The translations under genes and the position numbers were made by a program. A stretch of DNA of 45,999 nucleotides from an uncultured Prevotella sp. (GTDB taxonomy: Bacteria > Bacteroidota > Bacteroidia > Bacteroidales > Bacteroidaceae): contig ONKL01000038.1 in assembly GCA_900318395.1 (NCBI GenBank), forward strand, positions 1 through 45,999. The letters run 5' to 3'. This document shows positions 22,736 through 25,979 of the stretch, in pieces. Position 1 is the stretch's first letter. Each line of letters opens with the position of its first letter. The notes beneath the pieces were generated by a model. The model made no database searches. It was not told the origin of the DNA and was given only the letters and a program-made list of their open reading frames with translations.

Positions 22736-22801
22736 AGTCCCAACGTGGGAACATCTCAGTCCCAAGGTGGGAATGTTTCAGTCCCAAGGTGGGACTGCTT
22801 C
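22736..22801. repeat. Three tandem 22-bp repeats, each a small hairpin
   Basis: Copies start at 22736, 22758 and 22780. Each begins AGTCCCAAsGTGGGA, so each can form a TCCCA/TGGGA hairpin; the third is the best (AGTCCCA-AGG-TGGGACT). They lie just upstream of the helicase promoter. Confidence 0.85.
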
Positions 22802-22897: not shown

Positions 22898-23160
22898 AAG
22901 ACCTAACATGTTTTCCCGAAAAACTCCCTGTACATAAGGCTTTCAAGCATTTTTCAAGCCCTGAAGACCTAACAAAGAGGTAACTAAGACCTAACGTGAG
23001 ACCTACCGTAGAGGTAACGTGATTTCCAACACAATGCAGCCACTTCATGTTACCTCTTATGGTAGGTCTATGGTACCTCTATGTTAGGTCTTAGTGAGGT
23101 CTCAAAACGCCAATTTTGAGTGTAACATTCTGATAATAAGCAAACTGCCATTCTTTAACG
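22898..23160. repeat. Large inverted array of GACCTAAC / GAGGTAAC units
   Basis: Left arm 22966-23018 and right arm 23049-23101 are both 53 nt and form an imperfect inverted repeat around a 30-nt loop. Each arm contains five 8-bp units, either GACCTAAC-like or GAGGTAAC-like, spaced 11-12 bp apart. An isolated GACCTAAC lies at 22900-22907 and an inverted GTTAGGT at about 23160. No protein-coding function is credible here. Confidence 0.8.
23101..23120. repeat. Small inverted repeat next to the array
   Basis: CTCAAAA (23101-23107) and TTTTGAG (23114-23120) around a 6-nt loop, immediately following the right arm of the array. Confidence 0.6.
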
Positions 23161-23202
23161 TTAGGTTTTACAAGCTACGCCCAATTTTTCTTTGAATCCC
23201 AA

Positions 23203-23246
23203 AAATAGTTTCACAAGTCTTGTGAAAGACTATTTCATTTTTTTTT
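23203..23246 (+). terminator. Orphan strong intrinsic terminator
   Basis: AAATAG plus TTTCACAAG (23203-23217) pair with CTTGTGAAA (23219-23227), a GA bulge, then CTATTT (23230-23235). Nine T follow at 23238-23246. No plus-strand gene lies upstream for over 20 kb of minus-strand or untranslated DNA back to 19014, so it should end a non-coding transcript. Confidence 0.7.
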
Positions 23247-23278
23247 GTATAAAGCAATAGATATTCCCAGATTTTTTG

Positions 23279-23286
23279 TATATTTG
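23279..23286 (+). promoter_or_regulatory. -7 box in front of the structured RNA candidate
   Basis: TATATTTG followed by CATCG. No TTTG is found 19-21 nt upstream, so only the -7 half is supported. The start would be near 23291. Confidence 0.55.
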
Positions 23287-23289
23287 CAT

Positions 23290-23660
23290 CGTTTTCTGAA
23301 CAATGCCGAAGCCCAATGGGTGAAGGCTGCGGGACGGGAACCTATATATAGGAAAGGCGTTCTTGTAAAGGACAAACGCGTAAACGCGAGTTCTTAACGC
23401 TTTGTGCTTGACGCATCGGAATCTGGCAGTTCCAAACTAGTAGTCAGGAATCAAAGCAACATTGACGTCCATGGATATGTAGTATCCGACAAATGAATGC
23501 TGACAGCCATTATTGGCTTCGATGCAGTCATCGTCGTTTATATACATATCGGCGTGGGCTTCGGCGTTGCTCGTTCAACTACTAGGGCGATGCCAGAGCC
23601 TCGATGCGTGGGACGAGTGACAGGAAGATTCCACGCTTCTTTTATATGTAGTCACCAATA
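23290..23660 (+). ncRNA. Candidate large structured non-coding RNA
   Basis: This stretch has no credible ORF, is more GC-rich than the genes after it, and starts just after a -7 box. Its 3' part folds as one continuous rod: 411-418/602-609 (8 bp), 422-428/591-597 (7 bp), 437-444/578-585 (8 bp), 455-460/566-571 (6 bp), 474-481/543-550 (8 bp), 487-490/533-536, 493-496/528-531, 505-508/515-518 with a 6-nt loop (add 23000 to each). The rod thus spans 23411-23609. The 5' part contains the palindrome CCTATATATAGG (23341-23352) and GCGTT/AACGC hairpins. GTGAC (23617-23621) and GTCAC (23651-23655) could close the 3' end. A 199-nt rod resembles 6S RNA in size and shape, but I could not assign a family. 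The ends are approximate. Confidence 0.55.
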
Positions 23661-23670
23661 ACTAATGAAC

Positions 23671-23696
23671 CGCCAAGTTTTGGGAGTTTGCTTGGC
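23671..23696 (+). repeat. Hairpin before the 300-residue gene
   Basis: GCCAAG and CTTGGC (6 bp) around a 13-nt loop, 20 nt before the next ATG. It could be the end of the RNA or a leader element. Confidence 0.4.
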
Positions 23697-23716
23697 ACAA
23701 AAATGCTATTTTAGTT

Positions 23717-24619
23717 ATGAATGTAAAGGTAGGTGCAGCTATTATCAAAAAGATAGGAAAAAACTTGGAAGATAAAGCTTGTCTTGTGTTCATTTGCATC
23801 ATTATGTCTTTATCTATTATTGCAATAAACGCATGTGATAATACATATGTAAAATATGTCTCTGCAGATCAAATAGTTGAAGAGTTAGGCAAATCATATA
23901 TCCATTTTGAGGGAATTGGATACATTGAATCGGCTTGGATTTATTCACAATATGCAGAAGACAAGATTGCTGACTTTCACATTCATTTATCTGAAAAGCC
24001 AAAAGACATCACATACGGATTTGATCTCTCCGCAATTAACAACAACAAACATGCTGCCAAGGAATTATTTATGACAGAATTGAGAGGGCTAAAGGATAAT
24101 CATCGCGAACTATTTGACAGTTTGGCAAGTTTTAATCGTTCTGCTCGTTTCAACATAAATTCAGATAATGACACAATTACTGCAATAGTTATTCTGTCAC
24201 CCCATGACATAAAAGAAGCTCTTTCGAGACCTCCTTATAAAGACAATTCCGAATTGGGATTAGATGTTTTTTGTAGAACAATGAATATAACACTGCCAAT
24301 TTTGGTTGACAAATACACGAAATGGATGTCTGTAACATTAGACCAAAACTATGTTATATTTAAATATGAAATAAATGACTCTAATAGTCCTGTATATAAT
24401 TGGAATTTGGTACAACTGAAGCAGGAACTAACAACACAATATGGTCAAACTTTTGATTGTATTGAAAAGATTTTATGGAATGTGGTAGAAACAGACAGGG
24501 GCATGAAATATGTGTATTCAGGCACGTATTCTGGTAAAACTGCTGTAATAACTATTAACGAGAAAGAATTGAAGGACATATATTTCACGTTTTACAGATC
24601 AAAAAGATTGAATTTATGA
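23717..24619 (+). CDS. Unrecognised membrane-anchored protein
   Basis: I do not recognise this 300-residue protein. The N-terminus is basic (1-20), then one hydrophobic segment (about 22-39, LVFICIIMSLSIIAINAC) that is either a signal anchor or an atypical lipoprotein signal ending at INAC-D. The remaining 260 residues are polar and mixed alpha/beta, with no catalytic motif seen (ESAWIYSQYAEDKIADFHIHL; ITAIVILSPHDIKEALSR; AVITINEKELKDIYFTF). Codon use is strikingly AT-rich compared with the genes on either side of the region, which suggests transfer. It probably sits in the cell envelope facing the periplasm. It is followed closely by a broken small ORF and a zinc-ribbon membrane protein gene with the same composition. 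Confidence 0.6.
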   Translation: MNVKVGAAIIKKIGKNLEDKACLVFICIIMSLSIIAINACDNTYVKYVSADQIVEELGKSYIHFEGIGYIESAWIYSQYAEDKIADFHIHLSEKPKDITYGFDLSAINNNKHAAKELFMTELRGLKDNHRELFDSLASFNRSARFNINSDNDTITAIVILSPHDIKEALSRPPYKDNSELGLDVFCRTMNITLPILVDKYTKWMSVTLDQNYVIFKYEINDSNSPVYNWNLVQLKQELTTQYGQTFDCIEKILWNVVETDRGMKYVYSGTYSGKTAVITINEKELKDIYFTFYRSKRLNL

Positions 24620-24754
24620 ATATAATGAAAGAAAGTGTTAGGGCTTATTCAGAAAGAGAGGGGAAAATAAGAGTTTATCCTCTTCACATCTTTAATGGTA
24701 TTATATGCTATAATAGCCATAGGTTTTTCCAAGTATAACTTGGACATGAAATGA
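24616..24754 (+). pseudogene. Possible frameshifted small membrane protein
   Basis: An ATG overlapping the previous stop (ATGA) opens a 40-codon frame to 24738. In the +1 frame, directly after a stop, a hydrophobic stretch FILFTSLMVLYAIIAIGFSKY runs to TGA 24752-24754. Joined, they would make a small single-pass protein with a soluble N-terminus. This could be chance in AT-rich DNA. Confidence 0.25.
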
Positions 24755-24794
24755 ATAATATCAAAGAACAATTAATCGTTAAAGACTGTAACTT

Positions 24795-25979
24795 ATGTAT
24801 TGTAGAAAATGTGGCAAAGAGCTACCTGCCGACTCTAATTTCTGCCCGAACTGTGGTGCAAGGCAGAAAGAAGCGACATCTGGGCTTAAGAATCAGATTG
24901 TGACCTTTTATTATAATCACAAAACGGTATCTCGTATTTATTTGGCTTGGTTAGTATTACATGTTTTCCTTCTTTTATTAGCCAATCCAAGGGAGCATAC
25001 ATACAGAACGTATAGAGTCATAAGAAGAAGTGCAACTGATGTTAAAGCTGCTTTTTACCCCTTCAATAATTATGGAGTTGATTCGTATGACGTATCTGAG
25101 TTTTTCTTCTACACAATAGTATCTCCAATTATATTGTATAGTTTGTATAAACTTTTGTCGTATGGTTTTGCTGGTCTTCGCAAGCTATTTACCTTTATCT
25201 TCATTAGAAGAAAAGGTGAACCTAAATCAAGCCAAGAAACAACTTATGGTACTACAAAAGAGAAGATGGAAGATACGTCTAATCCGTCCATTGTAGTAGT
25301 TGAAAGCAGTCTCCAATCAGGATCCCCCGATTCAGAACTTTCAGAAGAAGTGACCCTGAAAGAGGCCATGCCATTAACCTCTGAAAATTCAGAAACAGGA
25401 ACTATAGTAGAAGACAGTAACCAAATAGAAATGATGCCATTACTCCGGAGATTCTTCGGCAGTATAATTGATAAAGTTTTCCTGTTGGTGTTCTTCTTCC
25501 TTACTTGTGAAAGTAATCCATTTCTTCAATCAGGCGATATAGGAGGCTACATTGGAATAATCGATAAATCTCCACTCAATTATAGAATATATGAACAACT
25601 TAGCATAACTAATTTGGGATTTGAAGCTTTGGACAAACGCGTAACATATTCTTTTATTCTACTTAATATCCTGTTCTATCTTCTTTTTGAAACTTTCAAG
25701 AAGGCCTCCCCAGGAAAGTACTTACTTGGTGGTATGTTGATAGACAATTTCTCTGATGCAATTGACTTCAGTAAAGCATTTTCAAGAGGATTATTGGGAG
25801 GATTTATGATGGTTGCATTCTATTTTTTGTTCCATCTGGCAATGGGACTAAACTTGGTCGTTGTCTTTTGCCTGTTTTTTCTCTGCATGGATTTACCTGT
25901 ATTATTTGTAAAGCGTTCGCTGCTTGACATCTGCACAAGGACGTATTATGTTAAACGCAAAACTAATACGAAATTTTGA
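24795..25979 (+). CDS. Zinc-ribbon protein with RDD-like membrane domain
   Basis: A 394-residue protein. An N-terminal zinc ribbon has C3-x2-C6 and C17-x2-C20 (CRKCGKE ... FCPNCGAR). A hydrophobic segment follows (about 49-64), with another near 105-125. A polar low-complexity linker rich in Ser/Glu runs from about 150 to 210. The C-terminal part (about 214-390) begins LLRRFFGSIIDKVFLLVFFF and has three to four membrane spans with ASPGKYLLGGMLID, which is the layout of RDD-family proteins. Zinc-ribbon/RDD fusions are common in Bacteroidota; function is unclear, with transport or envelope sensing suggested. The DNA is AT-rich like the neighbour upstream. It may share a transcript with that gene across a 175-nt gap. 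Confidence 0.75.
   Translation: MYCRKCGKELPADSNFCPNCGARQKEATSGLKNQIVTFYYNHKTVSRIYLAWLVLHVFLLLLANPREHTYRTYRVIRRSATDVKAAFYPFNNYGVDSYDVSEFFFYTIVSPIILYSLYKLLSYGFAGLRKLFTFIFIRRKGEPKSSQETTYGTTKEKMEDTSNPSIVVVESSLQSGSPDSELSEEVTLKEAMPLTSENSETGTIVEDSNQIEMMPLLRRFFGSIIDKVFLLVFFFLTCESNPFLQSGDIGGYIGIIDKSPLNYRIYEQLSITNLGFEALDKRVTYSFILLNILFYLLFETFKKASPGKYLLGGMLIDNFSDAIDFSKAFSRGLLGGFMMVAFYFLFHLAMGLNLVVVFCLFFLCMDLPVLFVKRSLLDICTRTYYVKRKTNTKF

What the first reader, a model, noticed from the sequence alone, without database searches (positions are those of the whole stretch)
23290..23660. Candidate large structured RNA with a 199-nt rod
Eight consecutive helices nest in order from 23411/23609 inward to a 6-nt loop, with only small internal loops, in a GC-richer island with a -7 box in front. 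The rod has the size and shape of 6S RNA, but there is also a 120-nt structured 5' part, which 6S lacks. This may be a known Bacteroidales RNA I cannot name or an undescribed one.
Basis: partly seen in the sequence, partly recalled or inferred. Interest (0 to 1): 0.7.

Follow-up and report, generated by a model that had tools for sequence, protein, structure and literature searches.

The report
Undescribed switch-like leader RNA, Bacteroidales
In front of many accessory genes of gut Bacteroidales (surface proteins, capsule regulators, phage defence) sits a long, intricately folded RNA leader ending in what looks like a stop-transcription signal; it matches no family in the RNA library and may be a shared control switch for acquired genes.

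Summary
It is the core of an RNA family with no Rfam 15 match: a covariance model finds it in 83 of 120 genomes of the genus (up to 10 copies each) and 46 of 295 across the order. Covariation is very strong: the 13 best of 38,919 column pairs are all rod pairs. It is not 6S RNA. The next ORF is on the same strand in 74 of 80 loci and 59 of 61 of a second set, typically about 100 nt on; the promoter box lies upstream and rarely in between, so this is a 5' leader. The genes differ widely. The leader also has a terminator-like hairpin with a U-tract, a helix that pairs that U-tract, and a downstream hairpin whose loop covaries with the terminator's 3' arm. Two sets of helices that compete for the same bases are each supported. 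Best reading: a transcription attenuator that flips between a terminating fold and a long-range rod fold. The signal is unknown and the switching is inferred.

The parts
23279..23286 (+). -7 promoter box TATATTTG of the Bacteroidetes type (TAnnTTTG; consensus recalled); transcript would start about 23294 (inferred)
   Evidence: TAnnTTTG occurs in 75 of 81 loci in -420..-60 of the rod, 58 of 89 occurrences at -120 to -81
23294..23716 (+). whole leader RNA from inferred start to just before the downstream ORF
   Evidence: inferred
23342..23359 (+). P1 5' strand (CTATATATAGGAAAGGCG), pairs with 23634-23651 including the U-tract
   Evidence: in the window's minimum-energy fold; family support z -7.0 and -6.4
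23356..23400 (+). H0 hairpin GGCGTT...AACGC, competes with P1; carries a window-specific insert within 23362-23395
   Evidence: family z -3.9
23404..23452 (+). P_A1 (23404-23412 / 23443-23452) with P_A2 (23418-23421 / 23430-23433): local hairpin of strand A, competes with the rod
   Evidence: family z: P_A1 -4.7 and -3.7, its outer part alone -1.6; P_A2 -7.1
23411..23609 (+). rod: h2 23411-23418/23602-23609, mid 23421-23428/23591-23598, h1 23437-23444/23578-23585, GCAAC 23456-23460/GTTGC 23566-23570, variable tip about 23471-23550
23551..23559 (+). GGCGTGGGC: in the rod (h7), or pairs with the terminator 3' arm (Z)
   Evidence: family z for Z -7.0 and -7.2
23566..23576 (+). X 5' strand GTTGCTCGTTC, pairs with 23611-23621
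   Evidence: family z -9.2; not testable in the second set
23606..23613 (+). terminator-like hairpin T, 5' arm GCGTGGGA; overlaps rod strand h2' by 4 nt
   Evidence: family z -9.2 and -6.8
23611..23621 (+). X 3' strand GGACGAGTGAC
23629..23643 (+). terminator 3' arm TTCCACGC and U-tract TTCTTTT
   Evidence: a permissive T-run pattern is met in 81 of 81 loci with enough flank and 70 of 72
23672..23696 (+). K hairpin GCCAAG-loop-CTTGGC; loop bases 23683-23689 pair with terminator arm 23626-23632 (pseudoknot)
   Evidence: family z -8.6 and -9.9; in the window itself the duplex is weaker than average (-7.5 against -10.9 kcal/mol)
23717..24619 (+). downstream ORF, 300 aa, no Pfam match at E<=0.01
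24795..25979 (+). second ORF, zinc ribbon (RDD match just under its cut-off); 23717-25979 is 34% GC

Best explanation
A cis-acting 5' leader of about 420 nt that gates transcription of the genes behind it. It can take two folds. OFF fold: local hairpins H0, P_A1/P_A2 and X, with the terminator 3' arm paired to GGCGUGGG (Z) or GUGGGA (T) right before a U-tract, so polymerase stops. ON fold: strands A and B zip into the long rod (h2, mid, h1, GCAACG/CGUUGC, h7); this takes GGCGUGGGC and part of GUGGGA away from the terminator arm, P1 pairs the ACGC and the U-tract, and once polymerase is through, the loop of hairpin K pairs with the CUCCC that is left. Most ON helices share bases with an OFF helix. 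Shown: the family, its position as a leader, and base-pair support for both sets. Inferred: that the hairpin terminates, which fold is ON, and that a cell signal or protein chooses.
For: Rod covariation. Leader position: first ORF on the same strand in 74 of 80 and 59 of 61, background 249 of 356 neighbour pairs. Promoter box upstream in 75 of 81, between U-tract and ORF in 2 of 62. Pairing against shuffled partners, z: P1 -7.0, h7 -5.4, GCAACG -9.6, GAAC -5.9, h1 -29.2, mid -16.1, h2 -32.7, K -8.6; H0 -3.9, P_A1 -4.7, P_A2 -7.1, X -9.2, Z -7.0, T -9.2; five controls 1.7 to -2.3. Retested in 73 other loci: h2 -32.2, h1 -28.7, P1 -6.4, K -9.9, Z -7.2, T -6.8, P_A1 -3.7; three controls -0.5 to -1.8. 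Leaders 80-81% alike over their rod part precede different ORFs in two sister species.
Against: No expression or termination data. Minimum-energy folds of the RNA up to the U-tract show rod strand h2 in 76 of 80 loci but T in only 14 of 80; X forms in only 36 of 80 when A-B pairing is penalised; for the window itself neither T nor X appears. P_A1's outer part alone scores only -1.6. X gave z +1.6 in the second set, where the search pattern had fixed one of its arms; H0, P_A2, h7, mid and the two short rod helices were not retested there. The rod overlaps T by only 4 nt, so both could partly coexist. The shuffles do not model descent; the within-cluster control (H0 -3.1, P_A1 -2.9, h7 -3.1) is dominated by two clusters. 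One control reached -2.3. The alignment behind one search was fitted to the rod model and leans towards it; that behind one search was not. K lies behind the U-tract, so it cannot act on a polymerase paused there. 37 of 120 genus genomes gave no match.
Confidence: 0.55

Rival explanations
1. Processive antitermination leader (as EAR, put or the UpxY/LoaP leaders): the folded RNA recruits a factor or modifies the polymerase so that it runs through its own terminator and through long, AT-rich accessory operons.
For: Downstream genes look accessory: of 77 first same-strand ORFs 11 match BspA repeats, 6 NusG, 4 LytTR, 2 hit DrmD/SNF2-type and 1 SspB defence models; the first 1.5 kb downstream is lower in GC than the upstream flank in 51 of 70 loci. 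UpxY is reported to prevent premature termination within 5' leaders in B. fragilis (PMC7819879, passage seen).
Against: A NusG match is the first ORF in only 6 of 77. Genomes with many leaders (G006 7, G027 10, G088 5) gave no NusG match, but that search found none at all, housekeeping NusG included, in 30 of 120 genomes and missed the NusG-like gene at this genome's C69, so this is weak. It does not by itself explain the competing helices.
Confidence: 0.2
2. Metabolite- or second-messenger riboswitch with many copies per genome; conserved letters of the rod form the binding site.
For: Sequence conserved beyond the variable helices, many copies, terminator-like platform.
Confidence: 0.15
3. 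Stand-alone small RNA of about 340 nt ending at the U-tract; the gene behind it is only a neighbour.
For: Own promoter box and terminator-like end.
Against: Same-strand ORF in nearly every locus, usually near 100 nt on, with rarely a box between; K covaries with the terminator arm across the U-tract.
Confidence: 0.05
4. Translational control: rod, P1 and K form a compact domain just before the start codon that helps or blocks ribosome entry; the U-tract hairpin is incidental.
For: K lies close to the start codon in many loci and P1 buries the U-tract.
Against: T and Z covary with the arm next to the U-tract, as a terminator would need.
Confidence: 0.05

Closest known systems
UpxY-dependent leaders of Bacteroides capsule loci
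   Same: Long 5' leader in Bacteroidales with premature termination before accessory operons (PMC7819879, passage); 6 of 77 first ORFs behind this RNA match NusG
   Different: 71 of 77 first ORFs here do not match NusG. Whether the published leaders hold this RNA was not tested; the 2024 UpxY paper cited was not held
EAR, dfn/mln (LoaP) and put antitermination RNAs
   Same: Structured leader before long accessory operons, with a terminator (LoaP: PMC12691694, passages; EAR and put recalled)
   Different: The LoaP element is one small hairpin; here about 420 nt with a 77-bp rod and a pseudoknot
trp-type attenuators and terminator riboswitches
   Same: Mutually exclusive helices sharing strands in a chain ending in a terminator (recalled)
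   Different: Long-range rod and K pseudoknot; no common pathway seen among the genes; leader peptides were not looked for
6S RNA (RF00013, RF01685)
   Same: Long rod of similar length (recalled)
   Different: No model match in the window, many copies, leader position

Membership tests
6S RNA | match to the Rfam covariance model | tested here: not met
   no match in the window for any Rfam family; own genome searched for RF00013 only, none (where 6 of 14 control genomes ring)
6S RNA | free-standing, one or few copies (recalled) | tested here: not met
   up to 10 copies per genome, fixed place before genes
Any Rfam 15 family, including 6S-Flavo and Bacteroidales-1 | gathering score reached | tested here: not met
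   at E<=10 five rows, all below gathering score
tRNA / tmRNA | ARAGORN prediction | tested here: not met
Cis-acting 5' leader | promoter box upstream, same-strand gene close downstream, no box between | tested here: met
   (sequence only; no transcript data)
Transcription attenuator | terminator-like hairpin plus competing helices | tested here: met
   minimum-energy folds favour the rod
Transcription attenuator | transcripts end at the U-tract and the share changes with a signal | not testable with these tools
   no RNA data
UpxY leader | NusG paralogue required | tested here: inconclusive
   NusG match as first ORF in 6 of 77; genome counts unreliable
Riboswitch | ligand binding | not testable with these tools
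   -

The most novel reading that the evidence does not exclude
One RNA switch architecture, spread through the Bacteroidales and also found on plasmids, acts as a portable gate for acquired genes: surface proteins, capsule regulators and phage defence wired to one cell signal through the same bistable leader, each copy re-coding its own pairing strands and its own K lock.
Probability: 0.25. Interest if true: 0.9.

Novelty: new variant of a known kind. Interest (0 to 1): 0.78.

Why it matters
It would add a large, widespread regulatory RNA family to a dominant gut order and would point to a shared layer of control over capsule, adhesin and defence genes. Because copies rewrite their helices yet keep both sets of pairings, the family would be a natural data set for how RNA switches evolve.

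Tried and rejected
6S RNA, any Rfam 15 family, tRNA/tmRNA: rejected. Protein remnant: the ORFs of 50 aa or more in the region are a 50-aa one over the 5' part and a 54-aa one over the rod, and the covariation is that of paired RNA. Pairing Y (GGCTTC..GTTGC with GCAATGC..GAGCC): whole z -5.6 but its upper part -1.1, not kept. Terminator arm with the 5' domain: z +1.9, rejected; GGCGTGGGC region with the 5' domain: z -3.8, left open. Model R1 (RNAalifold structure) was replaced by R2 (rod structure). Phages: no match. Phylum sample at E<=1e-5: 3 of 395 genomes, own included, one weak.

Rows dropped. Of the 30 loci, L012, L020, L021, L022, L028 and L030 were left out of alignment A1, hence 24 rows; L020 and L021 are second pieces of two copies, L012 and L022 look like two contig ends of one copy. 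In one search, 2 of 82 loci (L087, L139) had no downstream ORF; in 6 of the other 80 the first ORF is on the other strand; for three of these a later same-strand ORF was used in A4, the other three were left out, giving 77 proteins, each cut to its first 480 aa. The ORFs come from my own simple caller; 47 of 77 start 60-140 nt after the rod and some were called from start codons inside the RNA. For K's stem, 18 of 80 loci with a weak K duplex were dropped. In one search, 9 of 82 rows were dropped as equal to, duplicate of, or over 90% alike to the first set. The K and P1 windows were chosen after looking at the first set; the second set is the retest.

Literature: searches gave search listings; passages only were seen of PMC7819879, PMC12691694, PMC8040213, PMC2864571, PMC7366714 and PMC10994844. 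In none of what I saw is this RNA described. Supplementary tables of PMC8040213 could not be read, so it may be hidden there; subscription papers and preprints are not held.

Full report
What is there. The 199-nt rod is real. Window 23290-23660 folds 8 standard deviations below dinucleotide shuffles, and 23411-23609 alone forms one rod of 77 bp. The region is a GC island, 47.7% against 36.7% before and 37.5% after it. No Rfam 15 family reaches its gathering score in the window; in 22900-23800 at E up to 10 five rows appear, all below their gathering scores. No tRNA or tmRNA is predicted and RF00013 (6S) has no match in this genome.

It is a family. A blastn search of 60 genomes, own included, found matches in 14, several with more than one copy. 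Twenty-four copies were aligned with MAFFT (A1). On the RNAalifold structure (36 pairs) 90.8% of cells pair, against 32-42% when partners are slid by 1-3 columns; 19 pairs have changes on both sides; the covariation score is 0.456 against 0.234 shuffled (the structure came from the same alignment, which favours it over the slid versions). A covariance model of the rod (R2; variable tip removed) found the RNA in 83 of 120 genomes of the genus at E<=1e-4 with up to 10 copies each, in 46 of 295 genomes and 29 of 184 genera of the order, and in 3 of 395 genomes of a phylum-wide sample at E<=1e-5, own included and one weak. This genome has 4 copies. Two Phocaeicola plasmids carry it. Four IMG/VR contigs hold the core pattern, three of which match R2. 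The phage collection gave no match. With 84 copies, an all-against-all column test put 13 rod pairs at the top of 38,919 pairs; that alignment was fitted to the rod model, so it leans towards it.

It is a leader. I fetched 82 loci. The first ORF behind the rod is on the same strand in 74 of 80, and in 59 of 61 in a second set, against 249 of 356 neighbouring ORF pairs as background. The ORF starts a median 103 nt after the rod, 47 of 77 within 60-140 nt. A TAnnTTTG box lies in the 420-60 nt before the rod in 75 of 81 loci, 58 of 89 occurrences at -120 to -81, at 3.05 per kb against 0.54 per kb in a control stretch; between U-tract and ORF it occurs in 2 of 62. In the second set it is upstream in 62 of 68. 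So the RNA and the gene very probably share one transcript; no RNA data were at hand.

The genes behind it. Of 77 same-strand ORFs (the first one in 74 loci, a later one in 3), 11 match BspA leucine-rich repeats, 6 NusG, 4 LytTR, 3 ResIII, 2 SrfB, 2 SNF2, 2 short-chain dehydrogenases, and single ones AbiH, DUF4007 and MBOAT (25 of 59 families shown). Of the PADLOC defence models, DrmD/SNF2-type ones are hit by 2 members and SspB by 1 (25 of 64 shown). In this genome the other three copies precede an SNF2-type helicase, a NusG-like protein and an ORF whose first 480 aa match no Pfam family. In the window the two genes behind the leader form a 34%-GC stretch between genes of 53%; over 70 loci the first 1.5 kb behind is lower in GC than the upstream flank in 51. 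Leaders 80-81% alike to this one over their rod part lie before ORFs of other lengths and sequences in two sister species (137 and 94 aa, judged by eye). The module therefore seems to move between genes.

More of the RNA than the rod. Reading the 3' flanks showed a hairpin K before the start codon whose loop is complementary to the terminator 3' arm, and the fold showed a closing helix P1 in which the 5' strand pairs with ACGC plus the U-tract. Against shuffled partners K scored z -8.8 and P1 -6.7; the three controls of that call gave 0.0, -1.0 and -1.0. K's own stem arms scored -4.0 in the 62 of 80 loci with a strong K duplex. Because these windows were picked on the same data, I repeated the test on 73 loci not more than 90% alike to the first set: K -9.9, P1 -6.4, controls -0.5 to -1.8.

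Two folds. Besides the rod set (P1, h7, GCAACG/CGUUGC, GAAC/GUUC, h1, mid, h2, K) a second set that shares bases with it has support: H0, P_A1, P_A2, X, Z, T. All 14 beat shuffles over all rows (z -3.9 to -32.7) and shuffles within clusters (-2.9 to -24.3), while five controls lay between 1.7 and -2.3. X is the most telling for the second set, because its 3' strand has no partner in the rod set; but the second data set could not test it (z +1.6), since the search pattern had fixed its other strand. P_A1 and H0 are the weakest. The within-cluster control is only partial (two clusters hold 74 of 84 rows). A tree-aware test was not run.

Mechanism. In the window, rod strand h2' (23602-23609) overlaps the terminator 5' arm (23606-23613); GGCGTGGGC (23551-23559) is wanted by the rod and by Z; the P1 5' strand overlaps H0; K takes part of the terminator arm. 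The simplest reading is an attenuator: rod + P1 = read-through, X + Z or T = stop. Polymerase makes strand A first, which can fold as P_A1; the rod then has to zip from the tip outward while strand B is made, in competition with X. What tips the balance is unknown. Which fold is ON is inference, and some results do not fit easily: T appears in only 14 of 80 minimum-energy folds, X in 36 of 80 folds with A-B pairing penalised, neither of them for the window itself, and the unrestricted fold is a median 11 kcal/mol better than that local one. K lies behind the U-tract and could only lock the RNA after read-through.

What is known. Seven literature searches and passages of six papers turned up no description. 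The nearest idea is the UpxY leader of B. fragilis capsule loci (PMC7819879, passage), but 71 of 77 first ORFs here do not match NusG. I therefore call it a new RNA family and, as a device, a new variant of the transcription attenuator.

Noticed in passing
window 22964-23102: A large imperfect inverted repeat (38-nt arms, 82% complementary, 53 nt apart) built of GACCTAAC / GAGGTAAC units lies between the helicase gene and the leader's promoter.
   Followed up: partly
window 22736-22801: Three tandem copies of a 22-nt unit (AGTCCCAAxGTGGGAA...; 82% and 73% alike to the first) at and just before the start of the helicase ORF.
   Followed up: no
G328:C7:92116-92240 and similar: Short (about 115-125 nt) model matches in other Bacteroidales genera suggest a compact variant of the rod with a much smaller tip.
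   Followed up: no
L144 (own genome C69): A weaker copy (54 bits) precedes a NusG-like 216-aa gene that the genome-wide NusG search did not list.
   Followed up: partly
L289 7896-8073, L290 7896-8073: Phocaeicola dorei and P. vulgatus plasmids carry the leader before the same hypothetical gene.
   Followed up: partly
window 23303-23340: GCCGAAGCCCA near the 5' end is complementary to TGGGCTTCGGC in strand B; over 80 loci the 5' domain with that region scores z -3.8, a possible further competitor.
   Followed up: partly
L285-L288: Four viral-collection contigs hold the core pattern and R2 matches three of them (L286-L288); whether they are phages or host DNA was not checked.
   Followed up: partly
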